Under the pieces are notes generated by a model. That model had not been told where the DNA came from. It did not search any database and saw nothing but the letters and a program-made list of their open reading frames with translations. Shown here piece by piece: positions 10,704 to 56,926 of a stretch of DNA of 64,000 bases. This stretch comes from Singulisphaera sp. GP187 (GTDB taxonomy: Bacteria > Planctomycetota > Phycisphaerae > Phycisphaerales > SM1A02): positions 1 through 64,000 of the forward strand of contig CAMBOV010000006.1 of assembly GCA_945869475.1 (NCBI GenBank), in the 5' to 3' direction. The position numbers and the translations under genes were made by a program. Each line of letters starts with the position of its first letter. Position 1 is the stretch's first letter.

Positions 10704-11624
10704 ATGAGAATGGCCGATCCATTGATGTTGGCGACCTGGAGTTTCTCCGCTCGAGGATGCGCGAAAGCGTGGCCTGGATTAGCGGGCGGCGGATCATCGC
10801 TCGATGCGGTGTGCGCAGCCGCACGAGAGGCAGAGGAGGATCCGACGGTCGATTCAGTCGGTTTTGGTGGGTTTCCTGACGCAAATGGCGCAGTGAGCCT
10901 CGACGCCTGCGTGATGTTGGCTCCAGAGCGGTGCGGAGCGGTTTGTGCGGTGACGCGCCATCTGCACGTCACTGACCTCGCGCGCCGGGTCATGGAAGGG
11001 ACCAACTATGTGATGCTGGCAGGCGAAGGGGCAGATGCATTCGCCGATCGCCTTGGGTTTGGTTCGAGCCCGCTTCTCTCTGCAGACGCAGAGGCGAAAT
11101 GGCAGCAGTGGCGAGCTGGGAAGATTGTGCCCGCACCGCCCGCGAGGTCATCGATCGGCGAGGTGCATGTGCCGCATGACACGATCGGGGTGCTCGCGAT
11201 CGATTGCAATGGAGTGATGGCGGGGGCATGTTCCACAAGCGGACTTCCATACAAGATGGCTGGACGGGTTGGCGACTCACCGATCCCAGGTCACGGTTTG
11301 TATGTCGATCCTGAAGTGGGCGGCGCGGTCGCAACGGGCAACGGTGAACTCATCATGGGAGTGAGTGGATCGTTTCTCGCCGTCGAGTGCATGCGTCGAG
11401 GTTCGACGCCGCTCGAGGCAGTTCGTGAAGTGCTGCAACGAATCGAGCGACGATTTCATCCTGCGGCAGATCAGCAAATCGGCGTGATCGCATTGGCGAA
11501 GAATGGCGCGTGGAGTTCAGGGGCGCTGCACGCAGGATTCGTCGTCAGCGTGGCCGATGGTTCGGGCATTCGCACAGTGCCGTGCGAGCCTATCTTGCAT
11601 CCATCGAGAGAAACAATCCTATGA
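10704..11624 (+). CDS. Glycosylasparaginase/isoaspartyl peptidase family (Ntn hydrolase)
   Basis: This 306-residue protein has the N-terminal-nucleophile asparaginase fold: GGGSSLDAVCAAAREAEEDP, a VGFGGFPDANG segment, and the autoprocessing site HDTIGVLAID, whose Thr becomes the catalytic N-terminus. CSTSGLPYKMAGRVGDSPIPGHGLY follows, with the substrate-loop residues of N4-(beta-N-acetylglucosaminyl)-L-asparaginases. The family removes Asn from N-glycan stumps or hydrolyses isoAsp bonds. No signal peptide is obvious. ATGs at 10704 and 10710 are both possible; the open frame runs further upstream without similarity. The gene overlaps the next by ATGA. Confidence 0.85.
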   Translation: MRMADPLMLATWSFSARGCAKAWPGLAGGGSSLDAVCAAAREAEEDPTVDSVGFGGFPDANGAVSLDACVMLAPERCGAVCAVTRHLHVTDLARRVMEGTNYVMLAGEGADAFADRLGFGSSPLLSADAEAKWQQWRAGKIVPAPPARSSIGEVHVPHDTIGVLAIDCNGVMAGACSTSGLPYKMAGRVGDSPIPGHGLYVDPEVGGAVATGNGELIMGVSGSFLAVECMRRGSTPLEAVREVLQRIERRFHPAADQQIGVIALAKNGAWSSGALHAGFVVSVADGSGIRTVPCEPILHPSRETIL

Positions 11625-12187
11625 AGCTCTACACAAAGACAGGTGATGATGGATCGACTGGACTCTTCGGCGCGGGACGGGTGATGAAGCATCATCCGCG
11701 CATCGAGGCATATGGAACAGTCGATGAATTGAATTCATGGATCGGCATGTGCGTGGAAGCCTGCGCACGTGAGAGTGTCATCGAAGAGCGCATGCGCGCG
11801 ATGTTGATTCATATTCAGTCGCGGCTTTTCGATCTCGGAGCCGACCTCGCGACTCCCGCGGGCTCGCCAGGTGAGACGAAGGTTGCGCGCATCGGCGCTC
11901 GGCACGTTGCCGAGGCCGAGGCCTTCATCGACGAGATTGACGGTGAAAACGAGCCCATTCGCGTCTTTGTCTTGCCGGGTGGCACGCCGCTCTGTGCACA
12001 TTTACACGTTGCGCGCACGATTTGCAGGCGCGCAGAGCGGTTGCTCGTCGCATTCAATGAGAGCGAGCCACTGGGGGCAGAGACGATCCACTATCTCAAT
12101 CGATTGAGCGATTTGTTCTTCGCGATGGCGCGACGGGCGAACCTCGCGCGCGGCGTTGGTGATGTTGCGTGGCAGAAAGATGCGTGA
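11621..12187 (+). CDS. Cob(I)alamin adenosyltransferase, PduO type
   Basis: This 188-residue enzyme attaches the adenosyl group of ATP to cob(I)alamin to make adenosylcobalamin. The N-terminal ATP loop YTKTGDDGSTGLFGAGRV is diagnostic of the PduO/MMAB family. Also present are YGTVDELNSWIG, FVLPGGTPLCAHLHVARTICRRAERLLV with the catalytic Arg region, and LNRLSDLFFAMARRAN near the end. Translation is coupled to the asparaginase gene by ATGA. A cobalamin-binding protein gene occurs at 41.4 kb, but no corrin biosynthesis genes are in the window, which fits salvage. Confidence 0.92.
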   Translation: MKLYTKTGDDGSTGLFGAGRVMKHHPRIEAYGTVDELNSWIGMCVEACARESVIEERMRAMLIHIQSRLFDLGADLATPAGSPGETKVARIGARHVAEAEAFIDEIDGENEPIRVFVLPGGTPLCAHLHVARTICRRAERLLVAFNESEPLGAETIHYLNRLSDLFFAMARRANLARGVGDVAWQKDA

Positions 12188-42355: not shown

Positions 42356-43084
42356 ATGCGTGCGATGCGCCACAAAATCCCCGCGGCGATTCTCGCCTTC
42401 GCCATCGCGGGGAGCGCCCTTGCAGCCGTCGTCCACACAACCGCGGGTCCGTTCGGTGGATTTTTCGGTCTTTGGGGCCCCGATGTGTCGAGCCAGCAGT
42501 CCGTGGGCGCGCGGTTCATTCCGAGCGGCGATTTCACGCTGACGTCGATCAAGATGTGGTTCATGAACAACAGTTCAACCACTCATCCAACAGTGAAAAT
42601 AACGTTGCGAACGGATCAGACGGCAGGCACGGTAAGCACACCAAGCAGCACGGTGATCGAACAGTGGACGATCAACATTCAGGCGCTGGGGTGGAATCCG
42701 ATTCAAGAAGTCCTGCTCTCCACCGGCGGAGTCGCACTTCAATCAGGCGTCAAGTACTGGGTCGTCGCCGAATCGACTGCCTCGAGCGGCAGCAGTTCCG
42801 TCTGGAACTACGCATCAGTCGGCAATACGTTCAGTGCGACGACACTCTCGAGTGGCGCGTGGCAACCGGGTGGATCGGGTGCTGCACTGACATTGACGGT
42901 TGAAGGCACGGTCGGACTTCCCAATCCAGCCGATATCAACGGTGACGGAGTGGTCAATGGGATCGACCTCTCGTTTGTGTTGAGCGCATGGGGCGCCTGC
43001 GCATCGTGCCAAGCCGACATCAATCGCGATGGCACGGTCGACGGGTTCGATCTCGCGGTGCTCTTGTCGGCGTGGTCTGCGTGA
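42356..43084 (+). CDS. Secreted protein with C-terminal dockerin-like repeat
   Basis: The 242-residue protein has a signal peptide (HKIPAAILAFAIAGSALA, cut before AVVH). The middle is a beta-rich domain with many Thr, Ser and Gly residues, similar to choice-of-anchor type exported proteins. It ends with two calcium-loop-like segments, ADINGDGVVNGIDLSFVLSAWGAC and ADINRDGTVDGFDLAVLLSAWSA, which are dockerin-like and typical of Phycisphaerae. No active site is recognised. The gene upstream is divergent, and the SBP/MCP pair begins 28 bases downstream. Confidence 0.75.
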   Translation: MRAMRHKIPAAILAFAIAGSALAAVVHTTAGPFGGFFGLWGPDVSSQQSVGARFIPSGDFTLTSIKMWFMNNSSTTHPTVKITLRTDQTAGTVSTPSSTVIEQWTINIQALGWNPIQEVLLSTGGVALQSGVKYWVVAESTASSGSSSVWNYASVGNTFSATTLSSGAWQPGGSGAALTLTVEGTVGLPNPADINGDGVVNGIDLSFVLSAWGACASCQADINRDGTVDGFDLAVLLSAWSA

Positions 43085-46514: not shown

Positions 46515-47522
46515 ATGCGTTTTCGACGAGATGGATTCTGGTCTGACTCCTTGTACGGATTGCTCTGCGCACTGCTCGCAACCAGTGGTGGATGCGTGTC
46601 CAAGTCGATCCACCTTCGTGCTGTTGACGGCGTGACCGGCGCGCCAGTCGCAGATGCCGCGGTTCATCAACACGGTGCGCGGTGGTTCGCTTTTTTCCCA
46701 GAGACCGAACCCGCAGTGACCACGGACGCGCAGGGCGAAGCCGCAGTCGTGCTCAATGCGCGCGGCACGAATTTGGTGCTTCTGCGACCTGGATATGTGC
46801 CGACGCAACTTGCAATTGTGCCCCAGTCAGGCGCTCCTCGTGGCGGGACGCCCACGACCGACCTCATCAACGTTTCTCCGAGCAACTACGTTGAGTTCGA
46901 GCGACTCGCGTCCAATGCGCTCGTCGAGATTGAGTTGACGCCAACCGTTGCGCGCACCGTTCGTGTCTGTGTGCGAAGTGAGAGCGCGCTTCCACTGCAA
47001 GGTGTTGAAGTGATCGCACACACTGGACTCTTTCTTCCGAAGGATGGCACCGAGGCGCAGTGGGGACTTCCACCCATCCAAATCGTTGCAACGAGTGCCG
47101 ATGGATACGCGGAGGTCACCGTGTACGGTGGACTGCGCAACTACCTCTATGCACGGAGTGTTGGACGCGATTGCGAACGAATCTCACTCGACGAGTTTGC
47201 TGCGAACACTCAAGTTGATCTCACGCTGCCGAACGTCGAGTTCAAGTCAGCGGTCATTCGCCTTGTCGATGCCGCGACCGGCACTCCCATTGCAAATGCC
47301 ACTGTTCAGTGCGGAAAGATGTTCGATGGCGTCGCACGCGATCCAAATGGATGGTCGGTGCGGACCGATGCCAGTGGATGCACCCTAACCGTGCGACTTC
47401 CAGACGCGCACAACCTCTCCGTGACCGCGTCACGCCAGGGGTATCGCTCGAGTCGAAAGTTGATCGCGTGGCGACTCATTCGTGAGGGGCATCCAATTGA
47501 AATCTCGATCGATCGTGAGTGA
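46515..47522 (+). CDS. Lipoprotein with carboxypeptidase-regulatory-like domains
   Basis: The 335-residue protein begins with a signal peptide (YGLLCALLATSGGC) ending in a lipobox Cys. The body contains two or more segments of the type VDGVTGAPVADAAV and LVDAATGTPIANATVQCG. These are the first strands of carboxypeptidase-regulatory-like (transthyretin-type) beta-sandwiches common in bacterial surface proteins. The repeats are spaced by about 200 residues. No enzyme motif is present. It is probably a periplasm-facing or outer-surface lipoprotein. It precedes apaG by 32 bases. Confidence 0.75.
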   Translation: MRFRRDGFWSDSLYGLLCALLATSGGCVSKSIHLRAVDGVTGAPVADAAVHQHGARWFAFFPETEPAVTTDAQGEAAVVLNARGTNLVLLRPGYVPTQLAIVPQSGAPRGGTPTTDLINVSPSNYVEFERLASNALVEIELTPTVARTVRVCVRSESALPLQGVEVIAHTGLFLPKDGTEAQWGLPPIQIVATSADGYAEVTVYGGLRNYLYARSVGRDCERISLDEFAANTQVDLTLPNVEFKSAVIRLVDAATGTPIANATVQCGKMFDGVARDPNGWSVRTDASGCTLTVRLPDAHNLSVTASRQGYRSSRKLIAWRLIREGHPIEISIDRE

Positions 47523-47554
47523 ACGAGCGAGCCGACTGTGCCTATTCTCTGAAC

Positions 47555-47959
47555 ATGACCGTTGCTGCCACCAAACCCCTTGGCTCAGAGACCCTCACCG
47601 AGGGAATCCGCGTCGTCGTTGTGCCGAGTTTCGTCGAGTCCCACTCAGACATCGAGCGTGGGCGGTTCATTTTCGCTTACAAGGTGACGATGACCAATGA
47701 AGGCACGCAACTCGCTCGCTTGACGAGCCGTTCGTGGCAGATCGTCGACGCCGACGGAACACGCCACGATGTCGAAGGTCCCGGTGTCGTCGGTCAGCAT
47801 CCTGAACTCGCCGCCGGTGCGACGTTTGAGTACTCGAGTTTCTGCCCGCTCCCGACCGCATGGGGAACGATGGAAGGTCACTTCACCTTCGAGCGATCCG
47901 ACGACTCGACATTCGCGGCGCGGGTCTCTCGGTTTTACTTCGCGGCTCCGACGCTCTGA
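47555..47959 (+). CDS. apaG: ApaG-domain protein
   Basis: The 134-residue protein is a single fibronectin-like beta-sandwich of the ApaG family. Signature segments are FAYKVTMTNEG, LTSRSWQIVDADGTRHDVEGPGVVGQHPELAAGATFEYSS and WGTMEGHFTF. ApaG is linked to Co2+/Mg2+ resistance in gamma-proteobacteria and forms the ApaG-type domain in eukaryotic F-box proteins. The biochemical role is not settled. The NHLP operon begins 40 bases later on the same strand, but a functional link is not implied. Confidence 0.92.
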   Translation: MTVAATKPLGSETLTEGIRVVVVPSFVESHSDIERGRFIFAYKVTMTNEGTQLARLTSRSWQIVDADGTRHDVEGPGVVGQHPELAAGATFEYSSFCPLPTAWGTMEGHFTFERSDDSTFAARVSRFYFAAPTL

Positions 47960-47999: not shown

Positions 48000-48869
48000 A
48001 TGAGTCCACCAGGTGAAAGTGAACCCACCCTGTTTCGTAAGTCAGCACTCGAGTCGGTCGGGGGTCGCAATCGTCTCAATTCTCTCAGCCCGCTGATCTC
48101 GCCGCGCATGTGGATCGTGACTGCATCGCTCGCGCTCTTGCTCGTTGCGCTCGTCACCTGGGGATTTGCTGGGCTCATTCCACGCACGGTTGTGGGACGG
48201 GGAATCTTTATTCGCGGCGAACGGCTCGACTCGGTGAACGCTCCCGTGCAGGGGTTGATCCGCGAATTCCGAAAGAACAGCGGCGACCGAGTGAAAGCAG
48301 GAGAGTGCATCGCGATCATGTCAACGACGGCGCATGCAGACGATCCTCTCACGCCCGTGCTCGCATCGGCCGATGGAATGATTGTCTCGCTCGAAGCAGA
48401 GGCATGGGATTTCGTGACCGCGGGGCAAGTCATCGCCATCGTTGCAGCTGGTAAAGACGATCCGATTTGTATCGCATTTGTGCCGCTCGCTGAGGGTGTG
48501 CGCCTCAGCCTCGGCATGAGAGTTCGCGCCTCCTTTACCCATGGAGACTCGTACGGTGAAGCGCAAGCGATCGGCCGAGTGACCTCGGTGGATGGGTTCG
48601 TCACTGGTCGAGACCAGATGTTTGGACGAATTCCAAGCACAGATGTCATCGCGTCGATTCAGGAACAGTTCAGCACGGCGAGCGCAATCGTCGTCGAGTT
48701 CGATCGCGACCCCGCTGGTCGAGATGGTCTTCGCTGGACAACGCAGAGTCCTGGATCAGGAGCCGTTGCCAATGGAACTCCCTGCGATATCGAAGTCATC
48801 CTGAGGCAGATTCGACCCGTCGCGCTCATCTTGCCTGGACTTGACCAGGGTGATGGTGCTTCGCCATGA
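48000..48869 (+). CDS. NHLP-type bacteriocin system membrane-fusion (HlyD-like) secretion protein
   Basis: The 289-residue protein has one membrane helix (residues about 37-60, WIVTASLALLLVALVTWGFAGLI). A biotinyl-lipoyl-like hairpin domain follows (SVNAPVQGLIREFRKNSGDRVKAGECIAIM), then an HlyD-type beta domain (FVPLAEGVRLSLGMRVRASFTH). This is the adaptor or periplasmic arm of the exporter. Its stop overlaps the ABC gene start as ATGA. The order MFP, C39-ABC, second ABC is that of NHLP/NHLM bacteriocin export operons. Confidence 0.9.
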   Translation: MSPPGESEPTLFRKSALESVGGRNRLNSLSPLISPRMWIVTASLALLLVALVTWGFAGLIPRTVVGRGIFIRGERLDSVNAPVQGLIREFRKNSGDRVKAGECIAIMSTTAHADDPLTPVLASADGMIVSLEAEAWDFVTAGQVIAIVAAGKDDPICIAFVPLAEGVRLSLGMRVRASFTHGDSYGEAQAIGRVTSVDGFVTGRDQMFGRIPSTDVIASIQEQFSTASAIVVEFDRDPAGRDGLRWTTQSPGSGAVANGTPCDIEVILRQIRPVALILPGLDQGDGASP

Positions 48870-51088
48870 CGACCGAAGAGTCGTCCGAGATCGAAGAAGA
48901 GTCGACTGAAGAATCGCCAGCGCTTCCGCCGGGAAAGTGCCGATGCGTACGCGTGCCGACAACGATGCAAGTCGTCGCAGCCGAGTGTGGCGCAGCGAGT
49001 CTCGCAAGCGTTTTGTCCTACCACCACGCCTACCGACCGCTCGAAGAGGTGCGCGAGGCCGTCGGCGTCGACCGCGACGGATCGAACGCGTCACGCATCG
49101 CTCGCGCCGCTCGTCACTTCGGTCTTGACGCGGATGGTCTCAAGTGTGACATCGACTGCTTCGATGAGCTCGCCCTTCCGGCGATTCTCTACTGGGGACT
49201 CAACCATTTCGTTGTGCTCGAGGGATGGAATAAGAAGGGCTATCGCATCATGGATCCCGGAACGGGCCGACGATTCGTTTCACCCGAAGAGTTCAACGCA
49301 GAGTTCACAGGCATCGTTGTTTCGATGGAGCCGAGCGAAACATTCGAGCGCACTGGAAGCGCTCCATCCTCGTTGAGTCTCGTCATGGCGTGGCTTCGAG
49401 GGGGTGGCACGGCCATCTGGCTCACAGTTTTCGTGGGCATGCTGCTCGCGGTGCCGATGGTTGCGATCCCAGGAATTGCGGCGGGATACGTCGACAGCGT
49501 CCTCGCCGAAGGGCGATCCGATTGGATGCGGTGGATTCTGCTTGGGGCATTCATCGCACTCATCCTTGAGAACGGGCTCATGTTCTTGCAGCACCTGATT
49601 CTCGCGCGGCTCGAGCAACAACTCTCGCTCGAACGCACCTCTGATTTCTTGCAGCAGATCTTTCGATTGCCGACGACCTTCTTTGCGCAGCGCTATCCCG
49701 GAGACATCGTCGAGCGTGTGCAGAGCAACGATGGCGTCGCCGCGCTCCTCGCAAGCAAATTCGCCCCGGCCATCGTGCAGATTCTGACCCTTCTCGCCTT
49801 CCTCGCAGCGATCGCGTGGATCAACATTCCCATGGGCATCATCGCACTCGCCGCGGTGCTCGTCACGCTTGCGCTGCTCTTCGGTGTCGCGCGCGCGCGC
49901 GTCGATCAGGCGCAGTCGTTGCAACAGCAAGAGGGTATGAAACAGGGAGCGATCGTCGCAGGACTCTTGACCCTCGAGTCGCTCAAGGCTGGCGGTCGCG
50001 AGGCTGACTTCTTTGGTCGGTCGATGGGATTCGCAGCACGCGTGAGTGACAGGCGGCAGCGGGCCAACATGCTTTCCAATGCGATCAGCATTCTTCCATC
50101 GTGGTTTCAAGCGGTCGTCGTCTCAGTCCTCGTGCTCTCGTTTGGTGGATGGCAAGTCATGCAGGGATCGATGACCATCGGAACATTGCTTGGACTGCAG
50201 ATTCTGCTGCTTGGATTCATGACGCCTGTCACTCAACTTGCTGAGTTGATTCGCGAGATTCAAACGGTGCGCGCCGATCTGGGTCGTCTCGACGACGTCA
50301 TGTGCCACGAGATTGATCAACTCGCAGTCGATCCAGAGGTCGATGACGCACAGACGATCGAGTACGCCGATGGCGACCTCGAGTTGCGCAACGTGACCTT
50401 CGGATACGGTCACGGTCAGTCTCCGCTCTTGGCTGGATTTTCGCTCAAGGTCGCCTCGGGCGGGCGCGTTGCGCTCGTGGGTGGAACTGGATCGGGCAAG
50501 TCGACCGTCGCACGAATTGCAGCAGGATTGCTCGAGCCTTGGGAGGGCGATGTACTCATCGACGGTCGGTCACTTCGCCACATCGCACGTCACGTGCGCG
50601 CGGCGAGTGTCGCGACGATTTCGCAGCGCCCCGCGTTCTTCGAAGGCACCGTGCGCGAGAATCTCTCGTTGTGGAATCCAGACATTCCCGATGCGTGGAT
50701 GGCCGAAGCACTCGAGGATGCCCAACTGACCGAACTGATCGCCGCGCGTGGCGGACTCGATCAGTTGATTGCTGAAGGCGGAAGCAATTTTTCTGGCGGC
50801 GAGGCGCAGCGACTCGACATCGCGCGCGCGTTGTCGCGGCGACCGGCTGTACTCATCTTGGATGAAGCAACGAGTGCGCTCGATCCAGTCACAGAACTCG
50901 CCCTCGATGAGGCACTGCGACGGCGAGGAGTCACCTGCCTCGTGATCGCGCATCGACTCAGCACGATTCGCGATTCGGATGAGATCATCGTCATGGAGGA
51001 TGGCGAGGTCGTCGAGCGCGGCACGCACGATCAACTCATCGTGGCCGACGGCATCTACTGCGATCTCATCGCGGGAGAAGAGTCGTGA
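48866..51088 (+). CDS. NHLP-family exporter: C39 peptidase, permease and ATPase
   Basis: This 740-residue ABC half-transporter has an N-terminal C39 peptidase. Cys41 is in QVVAAECGAASLASVLSYH, His114 in GLNHFVVLEG, and Asp130 in MDPGTG. All three catalytic positions and the oxyanion Gln35 are in place. Six membrane helices and an ATPase follow, with Walker A GGTGSGKST (about residue 540), signature FSGGEAQ and Walker B LILDEATSAL. It should cut leaders after a double Gly and pump out the core peptide. It is coupled by ATGA at both ends. Confidence 0.93.
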   Translation: MTTEESSEIEEESTEESPALPPGKCRCVRVPTTMQVVAAECGAASLASVLSYHHAYRPLEEVREAVGVDRDGSNASRIARAARHFGLDADGLKCDIDCFDELALPAILYWGLNHFVVLEGWNKKGYRIMDPGTGRRFVSPEEFNAEFTGIVVSMEPSETFERTGSAPSSLSLVMAWLRGGGTAIWLTVFVGMLLAVPMVAIPGIAAGYVDSVLAEGRSDWMRWILLGAFIALILENGLMFLQHLILARLEQQLSLERTSDFLQQIFRLPTTFFAQRYPGDIVERVQSNDGVAALLASKFAPAIVQILTLLAFLAAIAWINIPMGIIALAAVLVTLALLFGVARARVDQAQSLQQQEGMKQGAIVAGLLTLESLKAGGREADFFGRSMGFAARVSDRRQRANMLSNAISILPSWFQAVVVSVLVLSFGGWQVMQGSMTIGTLLGLQILLLGFMTPVTQLAELIREIQTVRADLGRLDDVMCHEIDQLAVDPEVDDAQTIEYADGDLELRNVTFGYGHGQSPLLAGFSLKVASGGRVALVGGTGSGKSTVARIAAGLLEPWEGDVLIDGRSLRHIARHVRAASVATISQRPAFFEGTVRENLSLWNPDIPDAWMAEALEDAQLTELIAARGGLDQLIAEGGSNFSGGEAQRLDIARALSRRPAVLILDEATSALDPVTELALDEALRRRGVTCLVIAHRLSTIRDSDEIIVMEDGEVVERGTHDQLIVADGIYCDLIAGEES

Positions 51089-53769
51089 GCGACGATCAGA
51101 AGACAGTCGCTCAGCACGCGCTTGATTCTGGCGGTGAGTCGCTCTATCTCGATCGACGAAGTCGGATCTCGCTCGGGGCGTGTGATGACCTCTTTGTTGT
51201 AGTGCAGGGTGCGATGGTGCTCTTCGCGAGGCAACATGTGGGCGGGCGGCGCCACCGTATTGGTGTCGTTCCAGCGGGAGGTGCTTTTTCAGGTCGAGCC
51301 GAGGGCATCGAAGCGGTACCCATCAGCGAATCTGAACTGGTGCGAGTCAAGCCAAGCGATCGCGCGCGCATCGCGTCGGGGTCGAGTGCTGAACGCGCGC
51401 TCTGTGCAGCTATCGGCGCCGCGCTCGCCGCGTGCGGCACCTCTGTTCCACCAAGAGTCTCACTCTCGGCGGCGTGTGCGCACTGCGCGAATGAGTTCGC
51501 TCGCCGCGGAAGTGCGACGATCACCTCGGCCTTCTCGCGACACCTGCGTCGGCTCGTCAACGTCGCGACGTCGCGACTGGCGTTTTCAGACGAATTACAA
51601 TCGATGCTCGTCGAGCGACCTCCAAGTGGTCGAACAGCAGTGCCCGACGCGCGGCTTCCTCCGATCGTGCGCGCGTGCACGCAGATTGCCATTGAAATCG
51701 GTACTGAGCTCTCGACGATTCCAACGAGAATTCCGCGCGACAACACTCGGCGACCCGAGCAGATCTTTGCACACGTTGCGGGACTTGGCATTCGCCCCGT
51801 CTTCCTCGATCCGGGATGGTGGAACAGCGGCGTTGGATCGCTTCTCGCTTTTCGCGCCGAGGATCACGCGCCAGTTGCGATTCTTCAGACGCGCCGCGGA
51901 CTTGTCGCCTACGTGCACTCAGCGGGCGCGACAATCGGTCCTGTCGCGGTCGACGCGGCGTTCGCGGCACAACTGACTGGGATGGCTTCGCAACTCCATC
52001 CCACGCTTGCAGCCCACCACACGTCCATGGCGCAGTTTCTGCGCTTTGTGATTCGCGGATCGGAGCGGGACTTTCTGCACGCCTTCTTGATCTCAGGGCT
52101 GGCGAGTTTCGTAAATCTCGCGATTCCAATTGCGACTGGTTTACTCGTTAGCAGGGTCTTGCCAAGTGGCAGTGGATGGACCCTCGCCTTCCTCGGCGGC
52201 GTGCTCTTCGCAACGACACTGTGTGCTGCCGCCTGCGGCTTTGTCGTCTCGAATCTGCTGCTGCGATCCGAATCGCGCATCGCAAGTCGAGCACTCGGCG
52301 GTGTGCTCGATCGATGCTTGCGTATGCCCACGCAAGCTTTTCGTTCGTTCACGAGCGGCGATCTCGCTGACCGCATCCTCTCGGTTGGTGATCTGCAGAC
52401 GGTGCTCTCTGGCGCGGCAATCTCAGCGATCATGGCCGGCGTCTTCTCGCTGATGTACGTCGCTGTGATGCTGTACGTCAACACGGCCGCGGCACTCGTT
52501 GGATGCGCTCTGCTCGTCATCGCGGTGCTCTGGAGCATCGTGCTGAGCGCGATGCGCTCACGACTCTCGACAACGGTTCTCGAAGGTCAGGGACGGCTCT
52601 CATCGATGGCCCTCCAGTTCATCGCCGGAATCGACACGATTCGCAGTGCTGCGAGCGAGCAGTATGCGACGCTGCGGTGGATGGGTCCCTTTCGCGAAAC
52701 CCGTGCGGCCACGATGCGAATTCGCAGCCTTGAACGGCTCTTCGACAGTTTCGCCTCGGGCTTCCCGATGCTCTGCTTGATGATCTTCTGGGTCATGTTC
52801 TTGCCAGTCGATTCGACGGGCGCCGTCGCGCTCGAACAGCTCGGAGCCACCGACCGCGTCGCTGAGTATCTGATGTTCAACGCGGCATTTGTCGCAGCGC
52901 TCTATTCGGTCCTCGAATTCGGCGAACACCTCGGCGACCTCTCGTCGCTGCGCTCGACCTTGCGGCGCATCGCGCCGATCTTGAGCGCGCCGACTGAGCG
53001 AACGGCCGACCGCGAACAACCTGGGGTGCTCGGCGGAAAGATCGAAATCGCCGATGTGCATTTCGCCTATCCAGGAAGTGCCAACGAAGTGCTCTGCGGT
53101 GTCACGATGCATGTCGCCGCGGGCGAAAGTGTGGCGATCGTGGGTGGCTCTGGAAGTGGAAAGTCGACACTGCTTCAACTGATACTTGGGATGCGCCGAC
53201 CCAGCAGCGGTGAAGTGCTCTTCGATGAGAAGGCACTTGGACGGCTCGACCTCGTCTCAGTGCGCCGTCAGATTGGGTCGGTCGTTCAGAACACGCGCGT
53301 CATTCCAGGGTCGATTCTCGACAACATCGTCGGCAGCACTCTCTTCACTCCCAAAGACGCAGAGGCTGCGATCGATGCCGCTGGATTCGGCGACGAGGTC
53401 AAGAAAATGCCGATGGGGGTGCACACTTACGTCACCGATCAGACGCTTTCGGGGGGACAGGTGCAGAAACTGATGATCGCGCGCGCACTTGTGACGCGAC
53501 CGCGCATTCTGATCTTCGATGAGGCAACCAGCGCGCTCGACGAGATCTCGCAGGCGCAGGTGGTGCGAAGTTTGGAGTCGTTGCAGACGACACGCATCGT
53601 GGTGGCACATCGGCTCAGCACGATCCGAAGTGCAAGCAAGATCTACGTCATGGAACTCGGGCGCATCGTGCAGTGCGGCACCTTCGCCGAGTTGATCGCC
53701 GTCGAAGGACCCTTCCAATTGATGGCCCGCCGACAGATGGTCGACTTTGAAGATGAGACGTTGATCTGA
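51085..53769 (+). CDS. NHLP-family exporter, second permease/ATPase subunit
   Basis: The 894-residue protein has a unique N-terminal region of about 300 residues (LDRRSRISLGACDDLFVVVQGAMVLF), which resembles the cyclic-nucleotide-like fold of this subunit family. It is followed by a permease domain (about residues 340-620) and an ATPase with VGGSGSGKSTLLQL, TLSGGQVQKLMIARAL and ILIFDEATSALD. It would form a heterodimer with the C39 subunit. The catalytic Glu after Walker B is present. It is the last gene of the plus-strand operon. Confidence 0.92.
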   Translation: MSDDQKTVAQHALDSGGESLYLDRRSRISLGACDDLFVVVQGAMVLFARQHVGGRRHRIGVVPAGGAFSGRAEGIEAVPISESELVRVKPSDRARIASGSSAERALCAAIGAALAACGTSVPPRVSLSAACAHCANEFARRGSATITSAFSRHLRRLVNVATSRLAFSDELQSMLVERPPSGRTAVPDARLPPIVRACTQIAIEIGTELSTIPTRIPRDNTRRPEQIFAHVAGLGIRPVFLDPGWWNSGVGSLLAFRAEDHAPVAILQTRRGLVAYVHSAGATIGPVAVDAAFAAQLTGMASQLHPTLAAHHTSMAQFLRFVIRGSERDFLHAFLISGLASFVNLAIPIATGLLVSRVLPSGSGWTLAFLGGVLFATTLCAAACGFVVSNLLLRSESRIASRALGGVLDRCLRMPTQAFRSFTSGDLADRILSVGDLQTVLSGAAISAIMAGVFSLMYVAVMLYVNTAAALVGCALLVIAVLWSIVLSAMRSRLSTTVLEGQGRLSSMALQFIAGIDTIRSAASEQYATLRWMGPFRETRAATMRIRSLERLFDSFASGFPMLCLMIFWVMFLPVDSTGAVALEQLGATDRVAEYLMFNAAFVAALYSVLEFGEHLGDLSSLRSTLRRIAPILSAPTERTADREQPGVLGGKIEIADVHFAYPGSANEVLCGVTMHVAAGESVAIVGGSGSGKSTLLQLILGMRRPSSGEVLFDEKALGRLDLVSVRRQIGSVVQNTRVIPGSILDNIVGSTLFTPKDAEAAIDAAGFGDEVKKMPMGVHTYVTDQTLSGGQVQKLMIARALVTRPRILIFDEATSALDEISQAQVVRSLESLQTTRIVVAHRLSTIRSASKIYVMELGRIVQCGTFAELIAVEGPFQLMARRQMVDFEDETLI

Positions 53770-53784
53770 GCCCCGGTGATCCAA

Positions 53785-53839
53785 GGAAAACAAAAAAAGT
53801 AGTCAACGACCGTTCGGAGCAAGAACGGGCGCTGACTAC
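53785..53839 (-). terminator. Rho-independent terminator for the double-glycine peptide gene
   Basis: GTAGTCA (53799-53805) pairs with TGACTAC (53833-53839), and inside it CCGTTC (53809-53814) pairs with GAACGG (53823-53828). On the minus strand seven T (A 53792-53798 on the plus strand) and a further T-rich stretch follow. It lies 50 bases past the peptide stop. It also stands between the ends of the exporter operon and the peptide gene, so only the minus direction gets a U-tract. Confidence 0.9.
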
Positions 53840-53889
53840 AAGGCATTCATTCACCTTGGCTGGTGACGGTCGAAAGAAGACACGCTAAA

Positions 53890-54039
53890 TTAGCGCTTCG
53901 GCGTCCGCGCGCGACGGGCTGCAGTTGAGTTGCGAGCGACGCGGCTTGAGCCGCCTCCACTTGCTTTCTCGAGTTCTGCGTCAGTCAGTTTGACGGACTT
54001 CGGTTTGCTCTTCGACGAATTCTCTGGCTTTGGTGACAT
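53890..54039 (-). CDS. Double-glycine leader peptide, candidate cargo of the NHLP exporter
   Basis: This gene codes 49 residues. The acidic/helical leader ends in SVKLTDAELEKASGG, a leader with the L-x(2,3)-EL and double-Gly pattern cleaved by C39 peptidases. The presumed core after Gly-Gly is about 20 residues, begins GSSRVARNS and ends RARTPKR, has seven Arg/Lys and no Cys, Trp or Asp/Glu. AGAGGA (plus-strand 54047-54052) lies 7 bases before the ATG at 54039, and a good terminator follows. The open frame reaches to 54123, but the longer start has no ribosome site. It faces the exporter operon. No modifying enzyme is nearby. The cargo role is inferred. Confidence 0.85.
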   Translation of the reverse strand: MSPKPENSSKSKPKSVKLTDAELEKASGGGSSRVARNSTAARRARTPKR

Positions 54040-54046
54040 GATGATT

Positions 54047-54052
54047 TCCTCT
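54047..54052 (-). promoter_or_regulatory. Ribosome-binding site deciding the peptide start
   Basis: On the minus strand AGAGGA lies 7 bases before the ATG at 54039. It supports the 49-residue product rather than the 77-residue open frame that starts at 54123. Confidence 0.75.
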
Positions 54053-55209: not shown

Positions 55210-56016
55210 TTAGCGCAGCAAGTCGCGCGTCGCTCGCGCAATATCGGGTTGTCGCATCAAGTGCTCACCAACAAGCACAATGTGAATTCCATGCTCACGC
55301 AGTCGCGCGAGGTCAGCGGGGGCGGTGATTCCAGATTCACTCACCAGCACGCGTGGGTCCTCGACGAGGTCGGCCATCCGAAGCGAATGGTTGATGTCTG
55401 TCTTCATCGTGCGAAGGTTGCGATTGTTGATGCCAAGCAGCGAATATCCAGGATGGGGAAACCCAACATGGTTGACGACGCGGTAGAGATTGTCGGCATC
55501 GTGAACTTCGAGCAGAGTCGTCATGCCTAGCTCGACGCTGAGAATCTGAAAGTCGATAATCTCACTCTCGCGCAGACACTCGGCGATGAGCAAGAGCGCA
55601 TCGGCGCCAGCGGCTCGAGCCTCCCAGATCTGATAGGGGTCGACAATGAAATCCTTGCGAAGCACCGGCAAGGGGATCGCATCTCGAATCGCGTGAATGA
55701 ACTCAAGTTTGCCGCCGAAATCTTCGTGATCGGTGAGGCACGAAATCGCTGAAGCTCCCGCCGCGTGATATTGTCGCGCGATGGCCACCGCGTCAAAGTG
55801 TTCGCGAATGACCCCAGCCGATGGACTCTTGTGTTTGACCTCGGCGATGAGCCGAGTGCGAGAGGTGCTGCCATGGTCCACAACCGCTTGGAAGAAATTT
55901 CTCGGTCGACCAAGTTCTGAGATGCGCTCGCGCAGTTCTTCGAGTGGCACATCGAGTCGCGCTTGCGCCACCTCGGCGCGTTTGCGCTTCACAATTCTTG
56001 CAAGTGTGTCACTCAT
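55210..56016 (-). CDS. trpC: Indole-3-glycerol phosphate synthase
   Basis: The 268-residue TIM-barrel enzyme closes the indole ring in tryptophan synthesis. Conserved blocks are LIAEVKHKSPSAGVI (phosphate and catalytic Lys), FGGKLEFIHAIRDAIPLPVLRKDFIVDPYQIWEARAAGADALLLI in pieces, and GINNRNLRTM. The ATG at 56016 gives MSDTLARIVKRKRAEV. It shares the bases CATG with the start of the opposite CPBP gene. An open frame upstream of this ATG has no family similarity. Confidence 0.95.
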   Translation of the reverse strand: MSDTLARIVKRKRAEVAQARLDVPLEELRERISELGRPRNFFQAVVDHGSTSRTRLIAEVKHKSPSAGVIREHFDAVAIARQYHAAGASAISCLTDHEDFGGKLEFIHAIRDAIPLPVLRKDFIVDPYQIWEARAAGADALLLIAECLRESEIIDFQILSVELGMTTLLEVHDADNLYRVVNHVGFPHPGYSLLGINNRNLRTMKTDINHSLRMADLVEDPRVLVSESGITAPADLARLREHGIHIVLVGEHLMRQPDIARATRDLLR

Positions 56017-56926
56017 GGTCGTGTTCGCTGCAGAGAGTAGAGGGGCGAGCGAGCTCGTGCCCTCGCCGACCGCGTCGAACCTCTGGCCGATCATCTCGCT
56101 CGCGATCGGACTGGCGATCACGGCCATGGTGATCGCAACACGAGCGATGAAACTGAGCGGTGCGCCGCGAAGCGCGTGGCTCTTGAGTTCTGGCGCGTCG
56201 CTCGTGCTCTTCATGTTGCTGCTCGGAGTCGGACCGCAGGGCGGTGCCGCACTCGCAGCGCTGCTCTCGATCGCACCCGATGAGACGTCGCTGCGGGCAT
56301 CGGTGATTCACGCGAGCGGTACCTTCGCCCTTCAGATGTTGCTGCTCGCCGCGCTCTTTACAGCGCGACGCGGCGGCATGATTCGCGGACAGCACGAGTT
56401 CGATTCTGCAACGGGCAACTGCGGCGCTGAACCCTTCACCCACGCGCGCGCCGTCGCACTCGCCGCGATCGCACTCGCACTTGCATGGTTTCCACTACAG
56501 GCAGTGGGAACGATTGCATCGTCGATCCAACTCTCTTTCGGTGGAGCGGTGCCGCCACTTGAGGGTCACTCGACCTTCGAACTACTTCGCACCTCACCAA
56601 ACATCACGCTCAATGTTGCGATGATCGTCGTCGTTCTCGCCTTCGCACCGATCGCCGAAGAACTCGCCTTTCGCGGTGGACTCTTGCGCGCCCTGCGCGG
56701 GCTGCGTGTTCCCCCATGGCTCGCGATCGCGATCACGAGTCTGCTCTTCGCGGCCGTACATGTGCCCGCACTCACTGCAGGTGCGATGGCATCTGGACTC
56801 GCAACACTCTTCACTCTCGCAGTGATTCTGGGATGGTTGATGGAGCGCACGGGGCGTATCACCGCGCCGATCGTCGCGCATGCACTCTTCAATCTCATCA
56901 ACCTGATATTGTTCTGGACTGCATGA
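56015..56926 (+). CDS. CPBP-family intramembrane metalloprotease
   Basis: The protein is about 303 residues with six or more hydrophobic helices. The CPBP (Rce1/abortive infection-like) motifs are APIAEELAFRGGLLRALRG (EEXXXR) about residue 215, FAAVHVPAL with the second motif His, and AHALFNLINL near the end. The family cleaves membrane proteins or peptides and in some bacteria protects against bacteriocins. The ATG at 56015 overlaps the trpC start; a GTG at 56021 or a later codon is possible. The stop overlaps the trpS start as ATGA. Confidence 0.83.
   Translation: MVVFAAESRGASELVPSPTASNLWPIISLAIGLAITAMVIATRAMKLSGAPRSAWLLSSGASLVLFMLLLGVGPQGGAALAALLSIAPDETSLRASVIHASGTFALQMLLLAALFTARRGGMIRGQHEFDSATGNCGAEPFTHARAVALAAIALALAWFPLQAVGTIASSIQLSFGGAVPPLEGHSTFELLRTSPNITLNVAMIVVVLAFAPIAEELAFRGGLLRALRGLRVPPWLAIAITSLLFAAVHVPALTAGAMASGLATLFTLAVILGWLMERTGRITAPIVAHALFNLINLILFWTA

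What the first reader, a model, noticed from the sequence alone, without database searches (positions are those of the whole stretch)
48000..54039. Complete NHLP-type peptide exporter with a facing double-glycine peptide gene
A membrane fusion protein, a C39 peptidase-ABC and a second ABC are joined by ATGA overlaps at 48000-53769. Opposite, at 53890-54039, lies a 49-residue gene with a leader ending LTDAELEKASGG. This is a full export cassette plus a plausible cargo and no known tailoring enzyme in the window. NHLP systems usually export nitrile-hydratase-leader or Nif11-leader peptides; this leader is short and different, so it may be a new cargo class.
Basis: partly seen in the sequence, partly recalled or inferred. 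Interest (0 to 1): 0.85.

Follow-up and report, generated by a model that had tools for sequence, protein, structure and literature searches.

The report
Exporter paired with conserved small peptide
Four genera of one, probably lake-dwelling, family of planctomycete bacteria carry a peptide-cutting export pump that is always paired with its own tiny, positively charged peptide of a kind not previously linked to this pump, so the pump probably trims and exports that peptide, for a purpose still unknown.

Summary
The window encodes an NHLP-type exporter (membrane fusion protein 48000-48869, C39-ABC 48866-51088, ABC 51085-53769) and a convergent 49-aa double-glycine peptide gene at 53890-54039(-). 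The GG motif alone is not significant; conservation is decisive. The peptide faces the exporter in all 18 genus assemblies that reach the site, is under purifying selection (core pN 0.11, pS 0.49), and is followed by a covarying hairpin with one strong copy per genome.

Facing short GG peptides with different but equally basic, Cys-free, acid-free cores follow the exporter in three other genera, including loci in other chromosomal settings. The four genera form one exporter clade. True NHLP leaders, present in four other genera of the family, are absent from g2, g18 and g26 and found once, on another contig, in genus g1. No Nif11 leader was found in the genus and no tailoring enzyme in the window.

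Most likely it is a dedicated cleavage-and-export system for an unmodified cationic 20-mer, a core-genome trait rather than an accessory bacteriocin. Unexpectedly, the fusion protein lacks its TolC-docking hairpin in this genus, and the whole lipoyl-hairpin domain in a sister genus, so delivery may end in the periplasm. Function is untested.

The parts
47519..47959 (+). ApaG-domain (DUF525) gene just upstream of the cassette, possibly co-transcribed; conserved neighbour in g1 and g2
   Evidence: PF04379 104 bits; synteny
48000..48869 (+). Membrane fusion protein, 289 aa, one N-terminal TM helix; lacks the alpha-hairpin found in other NHLP-type adaptors
   Evidence: TIGR03794 118.9 bits, below cut-off 156.2; alignment
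48866..51088 (+). ABC1: C39 peptidase plus permease plus ATPase, 740 aa
   Evidence: TIGR03796 816.7 bits, below cut-off 853.3; PF03412
48953..49339 (+). C39 peptidase domain with catalytic Cys, His and Asp
   Evidence: PF03412; alignment to PDB 6mpz
51085..53769 (+). ABC2: permease plus ATPase without peptidase, 894 aa
   Evidence: TIGR03797 623.1 bits, below cut-off 709.4
53799..53839 (-). Conserved stem-loop followed by a T run (53792-53798), intrinsic-terminator-like for the peptide gene; invariant loop TGCTCC in the genus
53890..54039 (-). 49-aa double-glycine precursor peptide gene
53953..54039 (-). Leader, 29 aa, ending KLTDAELEKASGG
   Evidence: consensus from PMC6363468 and PMC2887384
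53893..53952 (-). Predicted mature 20-mer GSSRVARNSTAARRARTPKR, 2198.5 Da
54045..54052 (-). Ribosome-binding site AGAGGAAA of the peptide gene
   Evidence: similar purine-rich sites upstream of the orthologues

Best explanation
This is a dedicated cleavage-and-export system for one small unmodified cationic peptide. ABC1's C39 domain recognises the short leader, with L(-12), E/D(-8), L(-7) and A(-4) before Gly-Gly. It cuts after the second Gly and, with ABC2, moves the 20-residue product GSSRVARNSTAARRARTPKR (net charge about +7, no Cys, no acidic or aromatic residue) across the inner membrane. The peptide is transcribed from its own gene, which ends in a conserved hairpin terminator. Because the system is in the core genome and the core sequence is constrained, the product most likely has a standing role at the cell envelope or as a conserved extracellular factor, such as binding anionic polymers or signalling, rather than acting as an accessory toxin. 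Shown by sequence: gene content, pairing, conservation, clade restriction, the hairpin element and the shortened adaptor. Inferred: cleavage, export, absence of modification, site of delivery and function.
For: The peptide faces the exporter in 18/18 reachable genus genomes and in three more genera, including loci without the g1 neighbours. Those four genera form one exporter clade, 100/99, and the peptide profile finds nothing strong in other genera of the order. Core pN 0.109, pS 0.490. Only one C39 domain and one such peptide in this assembly. The C39 domain is closest to LahT150, which cuts Nif11, NHLP and short leaders through the last 13 leader residues (PMC6363468). No Nif11 leader in the genus and no NHLP leader in this genome; no tailoring enzyme among the window's main ORFs.
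Against: No experiment. The adaptor lacks the hairpin that docks TolC, so a complete path to the outside is not evident in this genus. Tailoring enzymes encoded outside the window were not searched for. The core shares composition rather than sequence between genera, so one common function is not shown.
Confidence: 0.72

Rival explanations
1. An unmodified microcin-like or class II bacteriocin: the exported cationic peptide inhibits competitors.
For: GG leader, cationic core and C39 exporter are the standard class II layout; the weak NCBIfam leader hits are to bacteriocin and pheromone families. A CPBP/Rce1-like gene, a family that includes bacteriocin self-immunity proteins (own knowledge), lies two genes away at 55781-56926.
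Against: Present in every genus member at a fixed locus, core conserved instead of diversifying, very hydrophilic (GRAVY -1.4), and the CPBP gene was not found near the g18 and g26 cassettes examined.
Confidence: 0.22
2. A secreted signal peptide sensed by the same species, like ComC-type pheromones exported by ComA.
For: Short GG leader, small unmodified product, constrained core within a genus and divergence between genera, as expected for a genus-specific signal.
Against: No receptor kinase or regulator is linked to the peptide; the g1 neighbours are housekeeping genes.
Confidence: 0.25
3. A RiPP: Ser, Thr or Arg of the core are modified by an enzyme encoded elsewhere before export, as in proteusins and Nif11 lanthipeptides.
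For: NHLP-type exporters usually serve modified peptides (PMC2887384); cores are rich in Ser, Thr and Arg.
Against: No Cys in any core; no tailoring gene in the window or linked in the loci examined; leader too short for the NHLP or Nif11 type.
Confidence: 0.1
4. The small ORF is not a gene: a chance open frame beside the exporter.
For: It is short, and its GG motif alone is expected about 0.45 times per window.
Against: Purifying selection at codon level, a start codon with a purine-rich site upstream in every copy, in-frame 9-nt indels only, and equivalent facing genes at unrelated loci in g18 and g26.
Confidence: 0.02

Closest known systems
NHLP/Nif11 peptide export system (TIGR03794/03796/03797; Haft et al. 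2010, PMC2887384)
   Same: Same three exporter families in the same order; GG leader end with Leu, Ser/Thr and acidic positions as in the published logo
   Different: Cargo has a leader of only 18-32 aa without NHase-like or Nif11 similarity, a basic Cys-free core conserved within the genus, no tailoring enzyme; exporter scores fall below the curated cut-offs; adaptor shortened in g1 and g18
LahT/PCAT family C39 exporters (LahT150, PDB 6mpz; PCAT1, PDB 4ry2)
   Same: C39 domain aligned over its whole length with the catalytic residues; leader offers the -4, -7, -8 and -12 residues described for this group
   Different: Two ABC proteins plus an MFP in a diderm, against a single PCAT in Gram-positives
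Class II bacteriocins and microcins with short GG leaders (for example TIGR01847, bactofencin A NF038163)
   Same: Length, GG leader and a cationic unmodified core; weak sub-cut-off leader hits
   Different: No immunity gene travelling with the peptide, no pore-forming character, universal presence in the genus, NHLP-type exporter
BesA, a hairpin-less periplasmic adaptor (PMC4446572)
   Same: Adaptor that dispenses with the alpha-hairpin
   Different: BesA serves an RND drug pump; here the hairpin-less adaptor belongs to a peptide-cleaving ABC exporter, and in g18 the lipoyl domain is gone too

Membership tests
NHLP-type exporter (Haft et al. 2010) | MFP, C39-ABC and second ABC encoded together, best matching TIGR03794, TIGR03796 and TIGR03797 | tested here: met
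   Best hits for all three, in order, with overlapping genes
NHLP-type exporter (Haft et al. 2010) | Scores above the curated equivalog cut-offs | tested here: not met
   118.9/156.2, 816.7/853.3 and 623.1/709.4 bits: a divergent relative, not a curated equivalog
NHLP or Nif11 leader peptide | Cargo matches TIGR03793 or the Nif11 family PF07862 | tested here: not met
   No hit for P0004; no NHLP or Nif11 leader in this genome
C39 double-glycine substrate | Gly-Gly preceded by L(-12), E/D(-8), L(-7) and a hydrophobic or small residue at -4 | tested here: met
   KLTDAELEKASGG and its orthologues; consensus from PMC6363468. One orthologue (G017) has GA
C39 double-glycine substrate | Cleavage by the cognate C39 domain | not testable with these tools
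   Needs in vitro cleavage
Type I secretion system | Adaptor hairpin that contacts an outer-membrane factor | tested here: not met
   Hairpin absent in g1 by alignment; OMF genes exist elsewhere in the genus
Class II bacteriocin / microcin | Linked immunity gene | tested here: inconclusive
   No gene travels with the peptide; a CPBP/Rce1-like gene two genes away was not found near the g18 and g26 cassettes examined
Class II bacteriocin / microcin | Antimicrobial activity | not testable with these tools
   Needs assay
RiPP | Modifying enzyme linked to the precursor | tested here: not met
   None among the Pfam matches of about 50 ORFs of the window; the rest of the genome was not searched for tailoring enzymes

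The most novel reading that the evidence does not exclude
A core-genome peptide delivery system of a planctomycete family in which an NHLP-type exporter was re-dedicated to one basic, disordered, unmodified peptide, and whose adaptor is losing the parts that reach the outer membrane (full in g2 and most g26, hairpin-less in g1, lipoyl-less in g18), so that the mature peptide is delivered to the periplasm or cell surface as a structural or regulatory envelope component rather than secreted. The conserved hairpin with an invariant TGCTCC loop after the peptide gene may add an RNA-level function.
Probability: 0.3. Interest if true: 0.78.

Novelty: new variant of a known kind. Interest (0 to 1): 0.6.

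Why it matters
It gives NHLP-type exporters a third kind of cargo (short-leader, basic and apparently unmodified) and shows such an exporter fixed in the core genome of a small-genome planctomycete genus rather than in an accessory bacteriocin island. The graded loss of the adaptor's docking parts in sister genera offers a natural test of whether a C39 ABC exporter can deliver to the periplasm alone. A survey of freshwater planctomycetes that probably covers this family named type VI secretion and bacteriocins only in other groups (PMC6461901).

Tried and rejected
(a) Paralogues of the peptide in this genome: one other hit, 15.2 bits, beside an aspartokinase-like ORF, chance; two weak hits in G008 and a weak hairpin copy there are also chance. 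(b) Motif significance alone: not significant. (c) Apparent absence of cargo in half of g26: first scans missed it because another gene, read as TolC-like, lies before it; the wider profile found it about 2 kb further on. (d) AlphaFold of the adaptor: useless, pLDDT 33. The peptide model (mean pLDDT 73, pTM 0.28) is too weak to argue from. (e) Rfam: only a sub-threshold nematode snoRNA match inside ABC2, spurious. (f) CPBP/Rce1-like gene as immunity protein: not near the g18 and g26 cassettes examined. (g) Phylum-wide search: one hit outside the family, G729 (E 2e-4), a 70-aa peptide with two GG motifs and acidic residues on a 3.8-kb contig, not the same type. (h) Five hits with E 0.005-0.01 in 400 order genomes are at chance level.

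Full report
OBSERVATION. The window (contig C6 of a 2.55-Mb, 32-contig assembly, 96.7% complete) carries a membrane fusion protein (MFP, 48000-48869), a C39-peptidase ABC protein (ABC1, 48866-51088) and a second ABC protein (ABC2, 51085-53769), overlapping by ATGA and GTGA. Their best NCBIfam hits are the three NHLP-export families TIGR03794, TIGR03796 and TIGR03797, each below its curated equivalog cut-off. Facing them at 53890-54039(-) is the 49-aa ORF MSPKPENSSKSKPKSVKLTDAELEKASGG|GSSRVARNSTAARRARTPKR with a good ribosome-binding site. Upstream is an ApaG-domain gene; downstream are asd, trpC, a CPBP/Rce1-like gene and a tRNA synthetase of the W/Y type.

IS IT MORE THAN CHANCE? The proof is comparative. 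All 18 other genus genomes hold the exporter. The peptide faces it in every one of the 18 assemblies (this one included) whose contigs reach the site; in G003 it sits on the contig that carries the other end of ABC2, and G009's contig ends inside ABC2. The core has a constant length of 20 residues, 9 of them invariant in the 16 aligned orthologues. Pairwise Nei-Gojobori proportions for the core are pS 0.490 and pN 0.109. In the genus the gene order apaG-MFP-ABC1-ABC2-peptide-asd-trpC-CPBP-tRNA synthetase is fixed as far as each contig reaches.

OTHER GENERA. A profile of the peptide plus the weak homologues found by synteny in three other genera (A2), run on 400 genomes of the order (163 genera), gave strong hits only in genera g1, g18, g26 and g2. 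These are the same four genera that hold the closest exporters. In g2 (G019) the chromosomal neighbourhood is the same; the g18 and g26 cassettes tested (L051, L053) show none of those neighbours within 19 kb, yet the peptide still faces the exporter. In five g26 loci another gene lies between ABC2 and the peptide; I read it as a TolC-like outer-membrane factor by eye, without a profile search. Cores differ between genera (AKSRSTSTSSVGRTGPRKSTRGR in g18, AAKGRSSLAKASGGRTASKGVNLGSKRR in g26), but the 14 examined have 6-10 K/R, no D/E, no C, at most one aromatic residue and pI 11.4-12. The A2 profile was built from these peptides, so its hits on them are expected; the independent evidence is position, orientation and clade. 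An ABC1 tree puts the exporters of the four genera on one side of a branch with 100/99 support.

CONTRAST WITH CLASSICAL NHLP SYSTEMS. In the same family, genera g7, g14, g29 and g57 have more distant exporters and NHLP leader peptides (TIGR03793; 10 of the 14 genomes searched outside the four peptide genera, up to 18 matches per genome). No NHLP leader was found in the 24 genomes of g2, g18 and g26 searched, and only one in g1 (G015), on a different contig beside a YcaO-like gene. Nif11 (PF07862) is absent from the genus. Exporters of g20, g21 and g30 have neither NHLP leaders nor this peptide, so their cargo remains unknown. About fifty ORFs covering the window's main genes show no tailoring domain of known kind; the single radical-SAM hit is ThiC, thiamine biosynthesis.

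HOW IT PROBABLY WORKS. The ABC1 peptidase is closest to LahT150 (PDB 6mpz, 114.9 bits) and keeps the Cys, His and Asp. LahT150 needs only about the last 13 leader residues, cuts Nif11, NHLP and short leaders, and binds leader residues -4, -7 and -12 (PMC6363468). The present leader offers A(-4), L(-7), E(-8) and L(-12). Cleavage after Gly-Gly would release a basic 20-mer of 2198.5 Da. With one C39 domain and one matching peptide in the assembly, one exporter and one substrate is the simplest reading. Cleavage, transport and absence of modification are inferred, not shown. Function is open: fixed presence, a constrained core and no travelling immunity gene argue against an accessory bacteriocin; composition rather than sequence is shared between genera, which fits binding to polyanions at the envelope, but a genus-specific signal is nearly as likely.

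THE ADAPTOR. In g2, most g26 and the NHLP-leader genera the MFP is about 420-450 aa with a coiled-coil hairpin between the two lipoyl halves; g26 L130 has a shortened one. In the 15 g1 loci examined (this window included) the frames fit a protein of 276-291 aa, and in the four g1 sequences aligned the lipoyl halves are joined by a short linker; in the two g18 sequences aligned the lipoyl and hairpin region is gone (about 211 aa). Hairpin-tip residues of HlyD are needed for TolC binding and secretion (PMC3391258), though BesA of Borrelia is a natural hairpin-less adaptor (PMC4446572). TolC-like proteins are encoded elsewhere in the genus. So either docking is done otherwise, or the peptide stops in the periplasm. 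A structure prediction of the adaptor failed, so this rests on alignment alone.

THE 3' HAIRPIN. Fifty nt after the peptide stop lies a long stem-loop (53799-53839) followed by seven T on the peptide strand. The fold z-score is -5.8. It is present in 18 of 18 loci; 7 of 17 pairs show changes on both sides and 92.6% of cells are paired; and there is one strong copy per genome, always at this locus. The loop TGCTCC is invariant. It is probably the intrinsic terminator of the peptide gene, but loop invariance suggests an additional role.

TAXONOMY. Named relatives are metagenome assemblies, two of them Phycisphaerales from deep Lake Baikal. This is inference; the assembly is unnamed.

VERDICT. 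A real, conserved exporter-cargo pair: a divergent NHLP-type exporter with a short-leader, basic, apparently unmodified cargo type. I found no description of it in the papers searched, which cover only open-access text. It is a new variant of a known kind, with an unexplained adaptor reduction that could make it more than that.

Noticed in passing
53799-53839 (-), and the same site in 17 other g1 loci: Terminator-like hairpin with covarying stem and an invariant loop TGCTCC, one strong copy per genome; loop conservation is more than a terminator needs. On the peptide strand the loop reads CUCC, complementary to Shine-Dalgarno-like sequences, so a regulatory 3' RNA is conceivable.
   Followed up: partly
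L051, L132 (genus g18): The exporter adaptor is reduced to about 211 aa: TM helix and C-terminal part only, with the lipoyl and hairpin region missing.
   Followed up: partly
L053, L122, L123, L124, L126 (genus g26): A gene that looks like a TolC-type outer-membrane factor (about 590 aa, lipoprotein-like start) directly follows ABC2, before the facing peptide.
   Followed up: partly
L117 / L140 (G015:C26 around 11504-11692): An NHLP-leader-like peptide beside a YcaO-like and an M50-like gene, a TOMM-like cluster on a different contig from the exporter described here.
   Followed up: partly
L088 / L138 (G098:C262:1-3240): Several tandem GG-leader peptides (MTDDKKKPEDETPKAQAEDAKPSEDLSDDELGKAAGG type) beside an NHLP-leader peptide; cores hypervariable.
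   Followed up: no
L200 / L201 (G729:C77:164-376): In another family of the phylum, a 70-aa peptide with two GG motifs in one ORF (SDEELEDVAGG and SDEELKDVAGG), on a 3.8-kb contig.
   Followed up: no
L055, L054, L056 (G037, G038, G047; genera g20, g21, g30): NHLP-type exporters in genomes with neither an NHLP leader nor the short peptide; cargo unknown.
   Followed up: no
42356-43084 (+): Protein with a type I dockerin domain (PF00404), consistent with the cohesin/dockerin 'planctosome' proposed for freshwater Phycisphaerae.
   Followed up: no
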